Shown piece after piece: positions 1-19,146 of a stretch of 64,000 nt of DNA. A program made the translations under genes and the position numbers. The stretch's first letter is position 1. Each line of letters starts with the position of its first letter. The stretch is from Uliginosibacterium gangwonense. Its GTDB lineage: Bacteria > Pseudomonadota > Gammaproteobacteria > Burkholderiales > Rhodocyclaceae. A model generated the notes under the pieces. That model saw nothing but the letters and a program-made list of their open reading frames with translations. It was not told the origin of the DNA and searched no databases. The DNA is taken from assembly GCA_005239635.1 (NCBI GenBank), contig SBBQ01000068.1, positions 1 to 64,000 of the forward strand, read 5' to 3'.

Positions 1-1568
1 CCGAGCAGCTTAAAAAAGATGCAAAAGGGCAAGACAAATCGACGTGGCTCGATTTGCGTGCGTACAACTTGCCCGGCGTACAAGTAGTAGACGACTACAC
101 GCTACGCATTACCCTGCGCAATAAATATCCGCAGTTTCAGTACTGGCTCACCATGCCGTTTTTTGCGCCCATGCCTTGGGAGGCGGATAAGTTTCATAGC
201 CAAGCCGGCATGGCTGAGCGCAATCTCACGCTTGATTGGTACCCCATTGGCACCGGGCCATACATGCTGACGGAGAACAACCCGAATGCGCGCATGGTGC
301 TCACGCGTAACCCTAACTATCACGGCGACACTTACCCGTGTGAGGGCGAAGCGGCAGACCGTGCAGCGGGTTTGCTGGCGGACTGTGGCAAGGCCTTGCC
401 CTTTATTGACCAAGCTATTTTCACCCGCGAGAAAGAGCAGATTCCCTATTGGAATAAATTTCTGCAAGGTTATTACGATGCCTCGGGCATTAGCTCAGAT
501 TCCTTTGATCAAGCAGTGCAATTCGGCAGTGGTGGCGAGGTTATGCTTACCGATGAAATGCGCGCACAGGGCATACGTCTCAGCACCTCGGTTGCCACCT
601 CCACCTTCTACATGGGCTTTAATTGGTTAGACCCCGTGGTGGGGGGGGGTGAGCCGACCACGGCCATTGCTAATCGCAAATTGCGCCAAGCAATTAGCGT
701 GGCGATTGATCAAGAAGAATTTATTTCCATCTTTCAAAATGGGCGGGGCGTTGCTGCGCAGTCTGCAATTCCACCGGGTATTTTTGGCTACTTGCCCACG
801 CAAGCGGGTATGAACCCAGTGGTGTACGACTGGGTGGATGGCAAGCCACAGCGCAAACCGATTGAAGAAGCCAAGCGTTTGTTGGCAGAGGCTGGCTGGC
901 CGGATGGACGCAATGCCAAAACGGGTGAGCCCTTGGTTTTGTATCTCGATACCACAGATGGCGGCTTAGGCAGCAAGTCACGTATTGACTGGTACACCCG
1001 ACAGTTCCAAAAAATGGGCGCGCAGCTCGTGGTGCGCAGTACGGACTTCAACCGCTTCCAAGACAAAATTCGCAAAGGTGCGGTGCAGCTTTTCTTCTTT
1101 GGTTGGAATGCTGATTATCCAGACCCTGAGAACTTCTATTTCTTGTTGGATGGTCAGCAAACCCGCGTGAAGCATGGTGGTGAGAACTCGGCGAATTACA
1201 GCAACCCAGAGTTTGATCGCCTGTTCGCACAAATGAAGGCCATGGAGAACGGCCCTGCGCGGCAAGATATCATCAACCGCATGAATGCCATTCTGTGGCA
1301 AGACGCACCGTGGATGTGGGGCTTTCATCCCAAGAGCTATGTTCTGCAACACGCTTGGTTGTTTAATCGTAAGCCCAGCAATGTCGGCAACAACGGGCTC
1401 AAATATCAGCGGCTCGACGTAGCGCTGCGTGAGCAGCAACGGGCGCGTTGGAACAAACCGGTGGTATGGCCACTTGTTGCAGGTGCGCTGCTATTGATCG
1501 CACTCGTGTGGCCGGCCATTCGACACTGGCGCCGTAGCGAGCAGGCGCGCGGTGCAACCTCCAATTAA
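1..1568 (+). CDS. ABC transporter substrate-binding protein, family 5 (5' end cut by window)
   Basis: The frame is open from base 3, so the start lies left of the window. The protein looks like the C-terminal two thirds of a DppA/OppA-type solute-binding protein that delivers peptides (or a similar ligand) to an ABC importer. Typical segments are GTGPYMLTENNPNARMVLTRNPNYHG early and an ADYPDPENFYF motif late. Unusually, after the binding domain comes one hydrophobic helix (VVWPLVAGALLLIALVWPAI) and a basic tail (HWRRSEQAR), so the protein is probably tethered to the inner membrane by its C-terminus. A G9 tract at 641-649 lies in frame (codes Gly-Gly-Gly). Partner permease genes are not in the window. 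Family sure; substrate unknown. Confidence 0.85.
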   Translation, partial: EQLKKDAKGQDKSTWLDLRAYNLPGVQVVDDYTLRITLRNKYPQFQYWLTMPFFAPMPWEADKFHSQAGMAERNLTLDWYPIGTGPYMLTENNPNARMVLTRNPNYHGDTYPCEGEAADRAAGLLADCGKALPFIDQAIFTREKEQIPYWNKFLQGYYDASGISSDSFDQAVQFGSGGEVMLTDEMRAQGIRLSTSVATSTFYMGFNWLDPVVGGGEPTTAIANRKLRQAISVAIDQEEFISIFQNGRGVAAQSAIPPGIFGYLPTQAGMNPVVYDWVDGKPQRKPIEEAKRLLAEAGWPDGRNAKTGEPLVLYLDTTDGGLGSKSRIDWYTRQFQKMGAQLVVRSTDFNRFQDKIRKGAVQLFFFGWNADYPDPENFYFLLDGQQTRVKHGGENSANYSNPEFDRLFAQMKAMENGPARQDIINRMNAILWQDAPWMWGFHPKSYVLQHAWLFNRKPSNVGNNGLKYQRLDVALREQQRARWNKPVVWPLVAGALLLIALVWPAIRHWRRSEQARGATSN

Positions 1569-2328: not shown

Positions 2329-5259
2329 TTAGCCACAACTACCAACTGCGCCGCACGCAGTACAGAAGTCACAGCCATCTTTCTTGATCACGGCGTTATT
2401 GCCGCATTCGTTGCACAGCCCGCCTTGCATGAGCCGTGGTTCGTTGTCGTTACGTGGCGCTTCGAGAATGCCCATCTCACGCACTGGGTAGCCTTCATCG
2501 GTCAGAATGCCGAGCATGGCGTAGCGGTGAATGATGAGCCGCGCGATATAAGCCACGGTACTGGGGTAGTTTTGTTGGCGACGGGTGCCCGGCACAAAGG
2601 CCATAAAGTCACCCAGCGGCTCGGGGTAGTTGAGTAGCTTGCGTAACTTCATGCCGATCCACGCCGGATCCATGACGCGCATATCGAGCGACAAGATGCG
2701 GGTGAGGCCATCGAGCGCACGTGGGTAGTTGCCGGACAGCCACACTGAGTACGGACGCGTTTCGCCACCGGGCAGCGTAATTTCTTTCAGGCCCAGCACA
2801 AACTCTTCGCTGGTGGCCGGATTGCTAATATCTACCGTCCAAGACAGCGTGCCGTCGCTACCGGTTTTAGGTTCTTGCACGGCAAACATGTTGTTGAGTA
2901 CAACGTTGTCGTTTTCGCTGGCAAGGTCGTCATGTAAGGCACCGAGTTTTTCGCAGCGGTAACGCACGACTTGTGCAAATGCGGCAACGACACCGGGTGC
3001 GCGTTTGAGTTCGCCATGCGGCGGCAGCGGTAATTCAAACGCATCACCCACGGTTTTTGCCAATACATCGAGCTTGAGTTTGAGCCAGCCCGGGTCGTTG
3101 GCGCGCATGTCCATCGACAATGTTTTAGCGACTGCGCCTAAACCACGCGGTTGGTCTGCGCCATTCACCCACACTTCAAACGGTTTGACGTGCAAGCGGC
3201 CGTCATTGCTGTCGTTTTCAACGTGGCCTACAAACAGTGCAAATTCACCTTGCGGCGTTTTGAGCATGTAGGTCCAGCTCGGGTTGCCGTCCGGCATGTC
3301 GGGGCGGCCCGGCCAACGCAATGAGGCCAATACAGGCGCGGGCAACTGGTGACCAATGGAAAGACGCTTGTTGGCTTCGCTAATAAAAACGTCGTGCGGT
3401 TGTTTTTTGTCGTCTGCGGGTTTGCTCGGCTCCACAGACAGCACCGCGCCCAAAACAGAATTGGGGCGGTAGGTTGCCAAGCCTTTAAGACCCGCTTTCC
3501 ACGCAGCGAGGTAGAGGTCCTCGAATTCTGCGTAGGGGTAGTCTTCCGGCACGTTCACCGTTTTTGAAATGGCGGTGTCGATGTAGGGCGCAACCGCAGC
3601 CACCATGTCTTTGTGTGCCTGCGCAGAAATTTCCAGCGCGGTTACAAAGTAGGCGGGCAGATTGGCAACGTCGCCACCAAGATGTTTGTACAAACGCCAA
3701 GCATAGTCTTCAACGGCATATTCTTTGAAAGTGCCGTCGGCCATGCGCTTTTTGCGCGAGTAGGTGTACGAGAACGGCGGTTCAATACCGTTGCTGGCGT
3801 TGTCGGCAAAAGCCAAGCTAATGGTACCGGTGGGTGCAATCGACAGCAGGTGCGAGTTGCGAATGCCGTGCTTGCGAATCTGCTCTTTAATATGCACAGG
3901 CAGGCGCGAAGCAAAGTTGCCGCCCGCCAAATACAGGTCTGCATTAAACAGCGGAAACACACCGCGCTCTTTTGCCAATTCAACCGAGGCTAAATAAGCG
4001 GCATCACGCATCACTTCAGAAATGCGGGAGGCCATGAGCCGCGCTTCTTGCGTGTCGTAACGTTGGCGCAGCATGATGAGCGCATCGCCCAAACCGGTAA
4101 AGCCAAGGCCCACGCGACGCTTGTTGGCAGCTTCTTGCTGTTGCTGCGTAAGCGGCCAGTTGGTGGCATCCAAGACGTTGTCGAGCATGCGCACCGATAC
4201 CGCTACAGTGTCTTCAAAGGCGGCGAAGTCGAACTCGGCGCGCTCAGTAAACGGCTGGCGCACAAAACGTGTGAGGTTAATTGAGCCCAAGTCACAGCAA
4301 CCATACGGCGGCAGCGGTTGCTCCGCGCACGGGTTGGTGGCTTCAATCGTCTCGCAGTAATACAGGTTGTTGTCGCGGTTAATGCGATCTAAAAACAGAA
4401 TGCCCGGCTCGGCGTGGTCGTAGGTGGAGCGCATGATCTGATCCCACAGATCACGTGCGCGAATTTTGCGGTACACCCACACACCACCTTCGCCATCACG
4501 TTGGCTATCGCGCTGGGCTTCTCGTTGATACGCACCTGCGGCCTTAAACTCGGCAGACGGTTCTGCCTTATGCACCAACTCCACCTCGCCGTCGCATTCA
4601 ACTGCCTGCATAAAGGCATCGGTAACGCCCACAGAAATGTTGAAGTTAGACAGATCACCTTTGTCCTTGGCGTGAATAAAGGCTTCAATATCAGGATGGT
4701 CGCAGCGCAGCACACCCATTTGGGCGCCACGACGTGAGCCTGCCGATTCCACCGTTTCACAAGAGCGGTCGAACACACGCATGTACGACACCGGGCCAGA
4801 TGCACGGCTTTGCGTGCCCTTAACGTGCGCGCCAATGGGGCGAATGCTAGAGAAGTCGTAGCCCACACCGCCACCGCGACGCATCGTCTCGGCGGCCTCA
4901 GCCAAGGCCGTATAAATACCCGGGCGGCCATCGCTAAACTCGGTAATCGAATCGCCCACCGGCTGCACAAAGCAATTGATCAGTGTGGCGGCCAGCGTTG
5001 TGCCTGCCGCAGAGTTAATGCGACCCGCCGGCACAAAGCCCAGTTCCTGCGCTTGCAGAAAGCGCGCTTCCCATTGGTCGCGCTTGTGCTCAGATTCCAC
5101 CGTGGCGAGTGCACGCGCCACGCGACGGCGCACTTCAGCGACGGAGGTTTCATTCCCCTTGGCGTACTTCTCAACCAGAACTTCGCCGGAAATTTCCTGC
5201 GCGGGCAGGACGGCGATTTTTTCTTCCTGGGAGAGGGGAACGAGGTCGATTTGTTGCAT
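2329..5259 (-). CDS. nrdJ: Adenosylcobalamin-dependent ribonucleotide reductase (class II)
   Basis: Reduces ribonucleotides to deoxyribonucleotides with a B12-derived thiyl radical. The 976-residue protein shows the reductase core ([20 protein letters not shown], the substrate site [35 protein letters not shown]), then two related repeats near residues 660-740 and 830-920 (both containing an LSMDMR/LSLDMR...DPxW pattern, as in TSCPD-domain tails), and a C-terminal zinc-ribbon-like segment CNECGN...[14 protein letters not shown] that probably carries the re-reducing cysteines. I place the start at the ATG of MQQIDLVPL because AAGGAG lies just upstream; the frame is open 29 codons further. Three copies of the dispersed motif are inside. 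Regulation: a LexA-like box lies about 195 bp upstream. Confidence 0.95.
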
Positions 5260-5454
5260 CTGAGGCTCCTTGTTGAACATCAGCATACCCCTCAAAAACT
5301 TGCTCCGAAAGCATTGACAGCCTCTTAGGTAGAGGTTCAGCCCCATGCTGTGGGCGATCCGAGCGCAAATGGCGCGGAAAGCCGCGTGTTACCGTTCAAG
5401 AATTGCTCAAACCCTGTTGCTGAGAGCATCTATAAATAATGCTGCATTGCGAAA

Positions 5455-5470
5455 CTGTAATTATGTACAG
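5455..5470. promoter_or_regulatory. LexA (SOS)-like box in the nrdJ upstream region
   Basis: CTGTAATTATGTACAG is an exact CTGT-N8-ACAG and continues as TACAGTA, matching the gamma/betaproteobacterial LexA consensus. On the minus strand it contains CATAAT, a possible -10. It lies in the 337-bp gap 5260-5596 between nrdJ (-) and the small remnant at 5597 (+). I see no cobalamin riboswitch in this gap, nor any other conserved element. Confidence 0.5.
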
Positions 5471-5596
5471 TATAAGTGCAGGGCTAAACCAAGGCAAGTC
5501 GAGTCTGTTTTACCTAAAAACGCGCTTTTCAACGGGAGCAGAAAGAACGCGCCATCAGCTGTTGAGTGAGATTGGTTTCAGTGGGAGGATTAAAAG

Positions 5597-5918
5597 ATGA
5601 CAAATAAATTCTTGGGCGTGTTCGAGTGGTACGAGGCCATTGGCAAATGGCTTGTTGAGAATGCACCGGAGCCGTGGGAGAAGATCGTCATCGACTTTGA
5701 AATAGAGGAGATAGATGACGTATTTCGAATACTGCATCGTTTACTTTCCTCTAGGCTCATCAAAGACTGAAAAACAATTCTTTATCCACGATACAAATTT
5801 CTTTGATTGTTTTTATCAATTGGCTCGCTTCACCAGTACTCCCGAAAATGGGCTGTGCAGAAAAAGTAAATTCACGCTGAACAAAGATGGACGTTACGAA
5901 ACAGATTTCGAATACTGA
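5597..5918 (+). pseudogene. Frameshifted small protein, possibly an immunity protein (DUF600/YezG-like)
   Basis: A good ribosome site (GGGAGG) precedes ATG 5597, which reads MTNKFLGVFEWYEAIGKWLV and ENAPEPWEKIVIDFEIEEID before running out at 5770. The next frame from 5715 reads MTYFEYCIVYFPLGSSKTEK and continues to a stop at 5918. Joined near 5712-5716 by one base change in length, they make one coherent protein of about 106 residues, with the EPWEK...EYxxxYF pattern I associate with DUF600-type immunity proteins of polymorphic toxins. No toxin gene is adjacent. Alternatively the 57-residue first frame is an independent small gene. AT-richer than its neighbours. Confidence 0.45.
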
Positions 5919-6015
5919 ACCATGCGAACGTATTCAGGCCTCTCAGGAGTAGATTGGGCCTAACGCGATAAGTGCAGTTCGCAGAAGGTCGCGCCGACCT
6001 CACGCGAATGCGCGA

Positions 6016-14858: not shown

Positions 14859-15046
14859 GGCAGGAATCCTTGCAAGTAATAAATGCGAGTTGCCAGCTTA
14901 GAAGGACTAGATGCGGAAAGTGTGTGCAGAATGTGCTGAAGTGTTACGGCATGTTATGGGGCGGAATGTCTGTATGTAGTGAAGAAACATAATGCTCGGA
15001 CAAATTATTGAATGAGGATCGGGATGTGTCGAAGAGAAAGTTCTCA

Positions 15047-16282
15047 ATGAAAATAGGCATTACGTTTCGTCGAGTTTTTGACTCTTCATTAAGAAACGCA
15101 CAGTACTTTGAAGGCAGAAGATTTGCTTTTGCTATCGTTGCCATCGTCGGCTTCCCTGCCTACTATTTTGTTTGGCATGACCTTATCCCTCAGCCCTATG
15201 AGAATCTCCCTTTAAGGTTGTTAGGTAGTTTGCTCTTTCTCCCTGTGGCTTTTGCTAAGTACTGGCCTCGGAGTTGGCGAAAATATCTCCCTGCATATTG
15301 GTACGTGGTATTGCTCTTCGCACTTCCATTCTTTTTCTCATTTATGTTGCTTAAAAACAATTCTTCCGAAGTCTGGGTGGAATCGATGCTTGTTGCAATA
15401 TTTGTGATGGTGGTTGTTTTAGATTGGTTCATGCTTATCGTTCATTTTATTCTTGGTATTGCGTTGGGGTGGCTGGCGTATGTACAGACAACACATGTAC
15501 CAACAGTGCCACAAGACATGCTTCCACATTTGCCTGTGGTTATTTTTGCAGTACTAATTGGAACGGTTGCAAACTATGCGACTGAGGTGGTGCGTTTGGA
15601 GCAAGAGAGGGCAATGATGGCTACTGCTGGTTACATTGCACATGAACTTCGTACGCCACTTCTAGGCATCAAAAGTGGGGCGCTGGGGCTAATTAAGTTT
15701 TTGCCTGAACTCATTTCTGGCTACTTAAGAGCGAAAGAGGCTGGTCTTGATGTTAAGCCTATACGAGAAGTGCACCTTGCGGATCTCAGGAAGGTGCTAG
15801 CTAGAATTGAATCAGAAGCTGATTATTCAAATGCAATTATTGAAATTCTCATTGCCAATGTCAGGCTAGATTCAATCAGATTGGATGATTGGCATAACTG
15901 CAGTATGCAAGATTGTATTAATGAAGCTGTCAGACGTTATCCGTTTGCGCAAGGGGAGCGTGAAAAGCTATCAATTGCCCCAGAGCTCGACTTTCAATTC
16001 AAGGGATCGAGGCTACTCATGGTGCATGTTCTTTTTAATTTAATTAAGAATGCACTGCGTCACATCCGTTATGCACAAAAAGGACAAATCACTATTTCAT
16101 ACATTAAGGGTCAAGTCAGTAATAAGCTTATATTCCGCGACTCAGGGCCGGGAATTGACCCTGAGGTTTTGCCCCATATATTCAAACGATTCTATTCTTC
16201 ATCTGCTGAAAGCAGCATGATAGGATCAGGGATTGGCTTGGCATTTTGCAAAGATGTGCTTGGCGCATTTGGGGGGGCATAA
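15047..16282 (+). CDS. lqsS: Quorum-sensing sensor kinase, LqsS/CqsS type (C-terminus frameshifted)
   Basis: Membrane sensor of alpha-hydroxyketone signals. From ATG 15047 (alternative TTG 15008) there are about six membrane helices in residues 25-180, then HisKA with GYIAHELRTPLLGIKSGA (His199), N-box NLIKNALRHI, G1 DSGPGI and G2 GSGIGLAFCKDVLGAFGG. As written, the frame ends at 16282 right after a G7 run. The next frame continues IICHSVKGVYTEFELTIPKL to a TGA at 16347 that overlaps the lqsR ATG by ATGA. So the ancestral gene ended at 16347 and an indel in the G-run removed the last strand of the ATPase domain. Legionella LqsS and Janthinobacterium JqsS are the nearest described types. Confidence 0.85.
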   Translation: MKIGITFRRVFDSSLRNAQYFEGRRFAFAIVAIVGFPAYYFVWHDLIPQPYENLPLRLLGSLLFLPVAFAKYWPRSWRKYLPAYWYVVLLFALPFFFSFMLLKNNSSEVWVESMLVAIFVMVVVLDWFMLIVHFILGIALGWLAYVQTTHVPTVPQDMLPHLPVVIFAVLIGTVANYATEVVRLEQERAMMATAGYIAHELRTPLLGIKSGALGLIKFLPELISGYLRAKEAGLDVKPIREVHLADLRKVLARIESEADYSNAIIEILIANVRLDSIRLDDWHNCSMQDCINEAVRRYPFAQGEREKLSIAPELDFQFKGSRLLMVHVLFNLIKNALRHIRYAQKGQITISYIKGQVSNKLIFRDSGPGIDPEVLPHIFKRFYSSSAESSMIGSGIGLAFCKDVLGAFGGA

Positions 16283-16347
16283 TTTGCCACTCAGTCAAAG
16301 GCGTATATACAGAATTTGAGTTAACAATTCCAAAGCTAGAATTATGA
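16271..16347 (+). other. Poly-G tract (G7) and out-of-frame true C-terminus of the sensor kinase
   Basis: G run at 16271-16277. With seven Gs the protein ends FGGA-stop; with five or eight Gs it reads through 23 more codons (GIICHSVKGVYTEFELTIPK...) to 16347. The ATGA overlap with the next gene and the family-like sequence GxIxCxSxxGxYTEF show that the longer frame is the original. Either phase variation, a fixed mutation or a sequencing error. Confidence 0.8.
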
Positions 16348-17363
16348 CCAAATATCAGATTCAGCCGTTCTATTACCCTACAACAGTCATCTTTGTTGAT
16401 GACAGTGCTGATTTTTTAGCTAATTTGTGTCTGCAGTTAAATAGCAACTTGGCTTTTCGTAGGTTCCATTCTCCGCATGATGCGTTGATAGCTATAAATG
16501 GCTCTTGTGTCAGCTCTACTTCAATAGATGATTTCTTCTCCCTGTACAATTCACGAGAAGACGATTTAATGGGACAGCATGTTATCAACGTCAGTTTGGG
16601 GCGAATACATCGAGAGGTTCACAACGACCAACGCTTTGAACAGGTTTCCGTTGTTGTTGTGGATTACGATATGCCGGATATGAACGGACTCGAATTCTGT
16701 AGGGGGATACACAATCCAAATATCAAGAAAATATTATTAACGGGGGTGGCAGATGAAAAAATTGCGGTACAGGCTTTCAACGAAGGAATAATCAATAGCT
16801 TTATCAGGAAGCACGATGTCGATGCGGTCGGCATTCTTGGTAATGCAATCCGTGAAATGCAAAACCAATATTTTGGACAGCTTGAACAGAAACTATCTGA
16901 TGCTTTGTCTGTTGGGTCCCATCTTTTCTTGAGCGACTCAAAATTCGCACAGCGCGTTAGAGAAATTAAGGTTTCTTTAGGAATTGTTGAACATTACATA
17001 GTTTGTGAGCCTGAGGGCTTGTTAATGCTCGATGGAGAAGGGCGGTCGTATTTGTTAATGGTAAGGACAGCTGAACAATATCGGGCTGACTATGAGATAG
17101 CATATGATCAGAATGCGCCGCTGGACATTCTGAATCAATTGAGACGAGGGGTTGCATTACCCTATTTTGAACGCGATCAAGATAACTTCTCTCCATCCTA
17201 TACCGAAAATTTGCCCAAAATGTTTGCGGCAGAGGAGTTTGAGGGAAAGCACTGGTATATGTATTCGGTTATTGATAGACCAGCCGCGTTTAATTTGAAG
17301 TATGTGACGAGTTACAACGATTTTCTTACGCGGCTGGATGATCAGGTCAAAGCACTAAATTAG
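16344..17363 (+). CDS. lqsR: Response regulator, LqsR type
   Basis: 339 residues, almost exactly the length of Legionella LqsR. The receiver domain is extended: TVIFVDDSADFLANL near residues 14-28 gives the acidic pocket, a long insert follows, then VVVVDYDMPDMNGLEFC with the phospho-acceptor Asp107, KKILLTGVADEKIAVQAFNEG and FIRKH. The remaining 170 residues show no helix-turn-helix or known output domain I can recognise, as in LqsR. Its start overlaps the restored stop of lqsS (ATGA), so the two are coupled; its stop overlaps the stop of the synthase gene on the other strand by two or three bases. Confidence 0.88.
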   Translation: MTKYQIQPFYYPTTVIFVDDSADFLANLCLQLNSNLAFRRFHSPHDALIAINGSCVSSTSIDDFFSLYNSREDDLMGQHVINVSLGRIHREVHNDQRFEQVSVVVVDYDMPDMNGLEFCRGIHNPNIKKILLTGVADEKIAVQAFNEGIINSFIRKHDVDAVGILGNAIREMQNQYFGQLEQKLSDALSVGSHLFLSDSKFAQRVREIKVSLGIVEHYIVCEPEGLLMLDGEGRSYLLMVRTAEQYRADYEIAYDQNAPLDILNQLRRGVALPYFERDQDNFSPSYTENLPKMFAAEEFEGKHWYMYSVIDRPAAFNLKYVTSYNDFLTRLDDQVKALN

Positions 17364-18628
17364 GCAACGTTCACTGCGGGTGTCACTCTCGTTGCATATC
17401 TACTTCGTCTTGTAGACGCCCAGTTTTGCATGCCGACTTCTCCTCTAATTTCTCTACATACACTGATTATTTTCTCAACAGAGTAATCATCAAGATTGGC
17501 GTTTAGTGAGAACCGCATGAGCGCCCGATTTTTTGCAGTGGCGGGGGCGCAAAAAACAGAGCCGAATACCCCTCTTTTTTCTAAGGCATTTCTTAGGATG
17601 ATGGTTTGTTGTTCTGTGCCCGACTCTAAAGAAATAATCTGAGATAGGCTGCCGTTGAGGTTGTAGCCAAGATCATCAAGACTTTCTCGAACCTTTTTTG
17701 AAATCTGCTGTAACTTGCTTCTTCTCCAATCTTCCTTTTGTATAACGTCGAGAGTTGCCTGCAGGCCGGCAATTTCATAAGGAAGTAGTGTCGAGCTGAA
17801 AATGGCTGGGTTTGCCTCGAATTTGAAGTAGTCGCTAAATTCAAGATTGCATGCGATGATGCCGGCCCTGCCTGCAAAAGCCTTTGCTAAACTGGCTGTT
17901 CGAAAATGCACTTTGCTGGTTAGATTTAACTCAACGACCAATCCAGCTCCGGCAGGCCCGTGTGTTCCCAGCGAATGGGACTCATCAACGACTAGAATAC
18001 ATCCTTCTTTTTCGCAGATATTTGCGATATCAACGAGCGGTGCGATGCTTCCATTTGTGCTGTACACCGAATCGATAACGACAACCCCAGGCCCTTTTCT
18101 AAGTATTTGTCGTTCTAGGTGTTCAGGATCGTTGTGAAAAATTGAGACTGCACTTGCCCCAGCGCTTCTAATTCCCTCCCACAGCGATGTGTGGGCCAAA
18201 ACATCAATATAGACGGGTGTATGTTCACTTGCGATGGACTGAATAAGACCGGTATTTGCGCACCACCCCGATTGACTAATAATGCTTGATTCGCTTTGCA
18301 TGAAGTTTGCAAACGACTTCTCAAGTGCTAATTGTTTATTGTCTCCATGTAAAAAAATGCCGGACATTAATGTGCCACTCCCATTCCTTTCGATCGAATC
18401 GGCGATGGCATATTTGATCTTGGGGTGTTGGGCTATAGAGAGGTAATCATTGCTGCTCAGAAGTGTGGAGTATTGATCAGGAGTGCGGCCGCGCATGATA
18501 TGTCCGCCATCCCACGTATTCATGACCCGCTCTCGGTAGTAACGATCTATACGGTTTTGAAGAAAGGCCGGGTTTTTGGGTGACAGAAATGCCTGGCGGC
18601 TACGAATCGGGGTGACGTTGTTTTCCAT
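17360..18628 (-). CDS. lqsA: Alpha-hydroxyketone autoinducer synthase (CqsA/LqsA/JqsA family)
   Basis: PLP enzyme of the 2-oxoamine synthase family (relatives: BioF, KBL), 422 residues. It joins an acyl-CoA with an amino-acid-derived substrate to make a CAI-1/LAI-1-like signal. LSSNDYLSIAQHP is the family start motif; VVDESHSLGTHGPAGAGL (Asp215, His218) and TASLAKAFAGRAG (PLP lysine Lys249) match CqsA rather than BioF. GGAG precedes the ATG by seven bases. Convergent with lqsS-lqsR and overlapping at the stops. The true BioF of this organism lies at 28604, which supports a distinct role for this paralogue. The AT-richer composition suggests transfer of the whole block. Confidence 0.88.
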   Translation of the reverse strand: MENNVTPIRSRQAFLSPKNPAFLQNRIDRYYRERVMNTWDGGHIMRGRTPDQYSTLLSSNDYLSIAQHPKIKYAIADSIERNGSGTLMSGIFLHGDNKQLALEKSFANFMQSESSIISQSGWCANTGLIQSIASEHTPVYIDVLAHTSLWEGIRSAGASAVSIFHNDPEHLERQILRKGPGVVVIDSVYSTNGSIAPLVDIANICEKEGCILVVDESHSLGTHGPAGAGLVVELNLTSKVHFRTASLAKAFAGRAGIIACNLEFSDYFKFEANPAIFSSTLLPYEIAGLQATLDVIQKEDWRRSKLQQISKKVRESLDDLGYNLNGSLSQIISLESGTEQQTIILRNALEKRGVFGSVFCAPATAKNRALMRFSLNANLDDYSVEKIISVCREIRGEVGMQNWASTRRSRYATRVTPAVNVA

Positions 18629-19146
18629 GATGATCTCCGTACATTGGCAAAAAGTGTGTTGCGGTGGTGTTGTCAGGGTTTCGATGGTTTGGGGGTAAGA
18701 ACGATTTTTACGGGGGGCCGGTTTGAAAAATGTCTATGGCATTGACTGGGGGCGCTGCGTGGTGCTGTCGGTGCGGATGCGTTCGACAGTGCGGTGTGCT
18801 AATTGGCAATCCAATGGTGCAGATACTGGTCTGCATATTCATCACGGTTTCATGGGTTTAGACCCGATAGAGACCTGCTTGAAACCTTAATTTTCGGTTT
18901 GAACATGTCCAAGTTTCTTACATTTGTCTATTCTCCTGAAGGGGTGTCGTAACCCTGCAACAGATTTGCCCTTTGTTGTTACAAGGTTTTTGTGGCGCGG
19001 ATCGAGGCTTTACGGGTGGCGGCTGCGCCGCTAGGGGCGACGAGAGGGCGTTTACTCGGTATAATCAACGCTTTAGCCGGTAGGTGGAGAGCAAGTTTGA
19101 GTGCTCTGCCGACGGTATGCCCTTTCCTGTACGAGCATTCCCTTAC
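18629..19146. other. 518-bp divergent intergenic region of lqsA and purL
   Basis: Contains two dispersed motifs (18643, 18802) and a perfect TATAAT at 19060-19065 with only a poor -35, which is the likely purL promoter. A GGGTTT-AG-ACCC-type small inverted repeat lies near 18855. No gene, RNA or riboswitch recognised. Confidence 0.5.

What the first reader, a model, noticed from the sequence alone, without database searches (positions are those of the whole stretch)
16271..16347. Poly-G frameshift switches off (or varies) the quorum-sensing kinase
A G7 run shifts the lqsS frame; the other frame encodes the expected last strand of the ATPase domain and ends with an ATGA overlap onto lqsR. Five or eight Gs would restore it. 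Homopolymeric G tracts are classic phase-variation switches; a population could be mixed for signal sensing. The truncation would also disturb coupling to lqsR.
Basis: partly seen in the sequence, partly recalled or inferred. Interest (0 to 1): 0.62.

Follow-up and report, generated by a model that had tools for sequence, protein, structure and literature searches.

The report
Frameshifted quorum-sensing kinase at poly-G run
In this draft bacterial genome the gene for a quorum-sensing receptor is cut short near its end by a frame slip at a run of seven Gs, which is probably a chance recent mutation or a sequencing error rather than a built-in on/off switch, although only reads or sister strains could tell.

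Summary
A G7 run at 16271-16277 is followed by TAA at 16280-16282, so the LqsS-type kinase ends about 22 residues early. The out-of-frame tail (16276-16347) encodes the family's C-terminus: it is the best of 127,874 translated stretches in the window (score 30.5, runner-up 10.2), and its stop overlaps lqsR as ATGA. In a model of an intact relative, the missing part is the last two strands (a beta-hairpin) of the ATPase domain, not one strand. lqsR, lqsA and the rest of lqsS look intact, so the lesion is single and recent.

None of 66 homologous matches is frameshifted (63 reach the C-terminus, 3 are cut by contig ends), and relatives spell the site with mixed Gly codons, so no tract is conserved. 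G7 is ordinary in this genome: 51 G/C runs of 7 or more, 37 in frame within coding sequence. No same-genus genome and no reads are available. A real chance slip (about 0.5), a consensus error (about 0.3) and an evolved phase switch (about 0.1) remain open. B. pertussis bvgS (C6/C7), H. pylori arsS and S. aureus agrA are direct precedents, so even the switch reading is a known kind.

The parts
15008..16282 (+). lqsS (AHK-type quorum-sensing histidine kinase), truncated: 424 aa from TTG 15008 (ATG possible at 15047); H box AHELRTPL, N box NLIKNALRH, G boxes DSGPGI and GSGIGLAFC present
   Evidence: HATPase_c matched only to profile position 89 of 111, against 108-109 in intact relatives
16271..16277 (+). 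G7 run where the reading frame breaks
16280..16282 (+). premature TAA stop
16276..16347 (+). out-of-frame tail, still encoding the conserved C-terminus and ending in TGA that overlaps the lqsR start
   Evidence: profile score 30.5 (next 10.2); relatives; modelled as two beta strands in L032
16344..17363 (+). lqsR-type response regulator, 339 aa, intact
   Evidence: Response_reg E 2.5e-09
17360..18628 (-). lqsA-type alpha-hydroxyketone autoinducer synthase, 422 aa, intact, convergent with lqsR
   Evidence: NF005526 589.9 bits, cut-off 428

Best explanation
A recent single frameshift at an incidental G7 run near the 3' end of lqsS. Replication slippage at the run is the likely cause (inferred). 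The kinase loses the terminal beta-hairpin of its ATP-binding domain (shown by alignment and by a model of a relative) and is probably unstable or inactive (inferred). Translation of lqsS now ends about 60 bases before lqsR, so the conserved stop/start coupling is lost and LqsR probably drops (inferred). The cell would still make signal through LqsA but no longer sense it through its only LqsS. The lesion sits in a repeat, so it could revert now and then, but nothing shows that the tract was selected as a switch.
For: Single lesion: the kinase motifs, lqsR and lqsA are intact. The tail is still conserved in the other frame, so there has been little time for decay. No other LqsS homologue close to this one exists in the genome: the next match is E 5e-9 against 6e-279. 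Relatives read straight through with mixed Gly codons, and 63 of 66 homologous matches reach the C-terminus, the other 3 being cut by contig ends. The assembly's other coding G/C runs of 7 or more keep frame in 37 cases, including G8 and G9, so runs are not generally misread.
Against: No reads or sister genomes: the same sequence could be a consensus error. One contig (C53, 46,490 bases) is a perfect palindrome, which points to assembly artefacts. A second run (G10, L123) also seems to break an ORF, as both error and genome-wide slippage would predict.
Confidence: 0.5

Rival explanations
1. Sequencing or assembly error: the living cell has an intact lqsS and the consensus miscounts the G run.
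For: All relatives are intact; the conserved tail and the ATGA overlap are perfectly kept; draft of 81 contigs with one perfectly palindromic contig; a second possible break at a G10 run.
Against: 37 other G/C runs of 7 or more keep frame in coding sequence, including G8 and G9, and the A7/T7 runs inside window genes are all in open frames; completeness is 99.95%.
Confidence: 0.3
2. Evolved phase variation: slipped-strand mispairing at the tract switches LqsS on and off, giving mixed signal-sensing and signal-blind cells.
For: The lesion sits in a G homopolymer; same layout as the phase-variable kinases bvgS (C6/C7, PMC1891110) and arsS (C15 to C14 at nt 1261 of 1347, early stop, PMC12838425); poly(A) reversion in the quorum-sensing regulator agrA (PMC6686034).
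Against: The tract is absent in relatives; 7 is short; such runs are common here and in frame in most genes; no polymorphism could be seen.
Confidence: 0.12
3. Programmed frameshifting or transcriptional slippage at the G run makes both a short and a full-length kinase from one DNA sequence.
For: The run could be slippery; the tail and the lqsR overlap are kept.
Against: No close relative has the run; no downstream structure stands out (z -0.67); by inspection, a slip into the tail frame gives poor tRNA re-pairing except on one Gly codon.
Confidence: 0.05

Closest known systems
Bordetella pertussis bvgS C6/C7 phase switch (PMC1891110)
   Same: Sensor kinase of a Betaproteobacterium truncated by a one-base difference in a short C/G run (6 against 7); master regulator of a phenotype.
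   Different: bvgS variation was seen between strains and within a culture; here there is one genome and no variation data. bvgS is not quorum sensing.
Helicobacter pylori arsS poly-C tract (PMC12838425)
   Same: Histidine kinase with a C/G tract close to the 3' end; a one-base change gives a few altered residues and an early stop.
   Different: The tract is 14-15 long and H. pylori is rich in such tracts; here G7 in a genome without such a signature.
Staphylococcus aureus agrA/agr phase variants (PMC6686034)
   Same: A quorum-sensing regulator is switched off by a homopolymer change, and some strains revert.
   Different: Poly(A) in a response regulator; reversion was measured there (0.12% in one isolate), not here.
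lqs/jqs loci of Legionella and Janthinobacterium (PMC3566124, PMC10653808)
   Same: Synthase, kinase and response regulator in one cluster.
   Different: No lqsS frameshift or phase variation came up in the literature searches made here; the local kinase is truncated.

Membership tests
Lqs/Jqs alpha-hydroxyketone quorum-sensing locus | LqsA/CqsA-type autoinducer synthase above the curated cut-off | tested here: met
   NF005526 589.9 bits against 428
Lqs/Jqs alpha-hydroxyketone quorum-sensing locus | membrane kinase of the LqsS type next to an LqsR-type regulator | tested here: met
   50-59% identity to Betaproteobacterial homologues over the shared length; adjacent lqsR
Lqs/Jqs alpha-hydroxyketone quorum-sensing locus | complete kinase catalytic domain | tested here: not met
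   HATPase_c ends at profile position 89 of 111; terminal hairpin lost
Homopolymer phase-variable gene (bvgS/arsS type) | coding homopolymer whose length sets the frame | tested here: met
   G7 with the conserved tail in another frame
Homopolymer phase-variable gene (bvgS/arsS type) | two or more tract lengths in one population or between strains | not testable with these tools
   no reads; no same-genus genome held
Homopolymer phase-variable gene (bvgS/arsS type) | tract kept by selection in related genes | tested here: not met
   13 of 13 relatives parsed have at most three Gs in a row at the site; in the wider set one of 38 has an in-frame G6
Programmed ribosomal frameshift gene | conserved slippery site with downstream stimulatory structure | tested here: not met
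   site not conserved; downstream fold z -0.67

The most novel reading that the evidence does not exclude
The G7 run is a true contingency switch of an alpha-hydroxyketone quorum-sensing receptor: a clonal population would hold signal-blind signal producers and signal-sensing cells, with lqsR dose switched at the same time through translational coupling.
Probability: 0.1. Interest if true: 0.55.

Novelty: new member of a known kind. Interest (0 to 1): 0.22.

Why it matters
If real, it is a natural loss, perhaps reversible, of signal sensing in a strain that keeps the signal synthase, which would be a test case for signal-blind cells in Lqs-type quorum sensing outside Legionella. If it is an error, it warns against calling the kinase a pseudogene from this draft.

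Tried and rejected
Same-genus comparison: none held. Genome-wide phase-variation signature: rejected, most runs keep frame. General decay of the locus: rejected, lqsR and lqsA are intact. Truncated relatives and G517: all three cut by contig ends, not frameshifts (for G517; contig coordinates for the other two). Programmed frameshift structure: none. Promoter scan of the locus: no more sites than shuffles. A literature search for a phase-variable LqsS gave one paper that holds both terms once each, judged from the hit list and not read.

Full report
Where it is. The window is the first 64 kb of contig C20 of an unnamed Burkholderiales-like draft genome (2.45 Mb, 81 contigs, completeness 99.95%). 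The nearest named kinases are from Variovorax. At 15008-18628 lies an Lqs-type locus: lqsS and lqsR on the + strand and a convergent lqsA on the - strand. LqsA passes the curated cut-off for alpha-hydroxyketone autoinducer synthases (589.9 bits against 428). The closest other LqsS-like match in the genome is only E 5e-9, against 6e-279 for itself, so this is the only candidate receptor of the type.

The observation. G7 lies at 16271-16277; the frame reads ...AFGGA and stops at TAA 16280-16282. In the relatives the protein goes on about 20 residues after FGG. I built a position-specific profile of the 21 columns after FGG from 14 relatives and scored every 21-codon stretch of both strands of the window. 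The stretch starting at 16276 scores 30.5, the best of 127,874; the next is 10.2. That frame ends with TGA at 16345-16347, overlapping the lqsR ATG at 16344. The 4-base overlap is conserved in 11 of 13 relatives examined. HATPase_c is matched to position 89 of 111 in the window protein and to 108-109 in three relatives. An AlphaFold2 model of the Variovorax JS1663 homologue (mean pLDDT 77; 75-89 over the C-terminal blocks) has two strands, 404-410 and 414-421, after FGG at 401-403. The loss is therefore a whole beta-hairpin.

Is it more than a chance run? The run itself is ordinary. The genome has 51 distinct G/C runs of 7 or more. With a codon-usage model trained on the window's long ORFs, 37 of them have the same coding frame on both sides, including G8 and G9 runs; the rest are intergenic, tRNA-like, near ORF ends, ambiguous or broken. 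lqsS is the only one for which homology shows a broken gene. A G10 run in a repeat-rich RTX-type hydrolase ORF (L123) is a second candidate. In the window, the other homopolymers (A7, T7, G6) that fall inside long ORFs leave them open. The assembly is thus not generally unreliable at runs, but it is not clean either: contig C53 (46,490 bases) is identical to its own reverse complement over its full length.

Relatives. Among 399 family, 399 order and 369 class genomes searched, 66 matches to homologous kinases were listed besides the window's. 63 reach the last profile positions and 3 stop at contig ends (L204 checked, the other two by their contig coordinates). None is frameshifted. The glycine pair is spelled GGC, GGT or GGA in the family relatives, with at most three Gs in a row. 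In a wider set of 38, one distant homologue (L205) has a G6 in frame. The tract is therefore not an inherited device. No genome of the same genus is held, so strain variation cannot be tested.

Mechanism. Shown: a single frame break, a retained tail, an intact remainder of the locus, and a lost stop/start overlap. Inferred: slippage as the cause, loss of kinase function, lower LqsR through lost coupling (no strong ribosome-binding site is evident before the lqsR ATG, by inspection), continued signal synthesis. A programmed frameshift is unlikely: the site is not conserved, there is no structure downstream (z -0.67), and re-pairing is poor by inspection.

Known parallels. B. pertussis bvgS, a sensor kinase, is truncated when a C6 run becomes C7 (PMC1891110). 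[quoted passage not shown] H. pylori arsS has a C15 to C14 change at nt 1261 of 1347 with an early stop (PMC12838425). S. aureus agrA poly(A) variants revert in some strains (PMC6686034). Lqs-type loci are known in Betaproteobacteria (PMC3566124; PMC10653808). The finding would be a new member of a known kind if real.

Verdict. The switch interpretation is possible but unsupported beyond the presence of the run. Probabilities: real incidental frameshift 0.5, consensus error 0.3, phase variation 0.12, decoding slippage 0.05. Intact copies of the gene exist in relatives; I list no mends.

Noticed in passing
G000:C53 (L189, L190, L191, L192): The whole 46,490-base contig equals its own reverse complement with no mismatch: a perfect palindrome, probably an assembly or amplification artefact that doubles 23 kb of the genome.
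   Followed up: yes
L123:1471-3006 (- strand), C11:43282-43291: G10 run near the end of an ORF with hydrolase-like sequence and RTX-like repeats; the ORF ends 9 codons after the run, in mid-repeat, so this may be a second homopolymer frameshift.
   Followed up: partly
window 15000-18700; L032 and L033 about 3000-6000: The lqs locus is an island of low G+C (0.41-0.47 against 0.53 for the window); the lqs loci of two Variovorax genomes are also low (0.48-0.56 against 0.64-0.70), and full-length homologues occur in only 12 of 399 family genomes, which suggests horizontal spread.
   Followed up: partly
window 641-649: A G9 run lies in frame inside an ABC-type substrate-binding protein ORF: a useful internal control for read errors and a potential slip site.
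   Followed up: no
L205 (G043): A distant LqsS homologue has an in-frame G6 run (TGG GGG GCG) at the same place in the protein.
   Followed up: no
C10:276-284 and C10:5118-5126 (L116, L119): Two nearly identical G9 runs in a context (GGTGCCGGGGGGGGGACTCGAACCCCC) that looks like the 3' half of a tRNA gene on the other strand.
   Followed up: no
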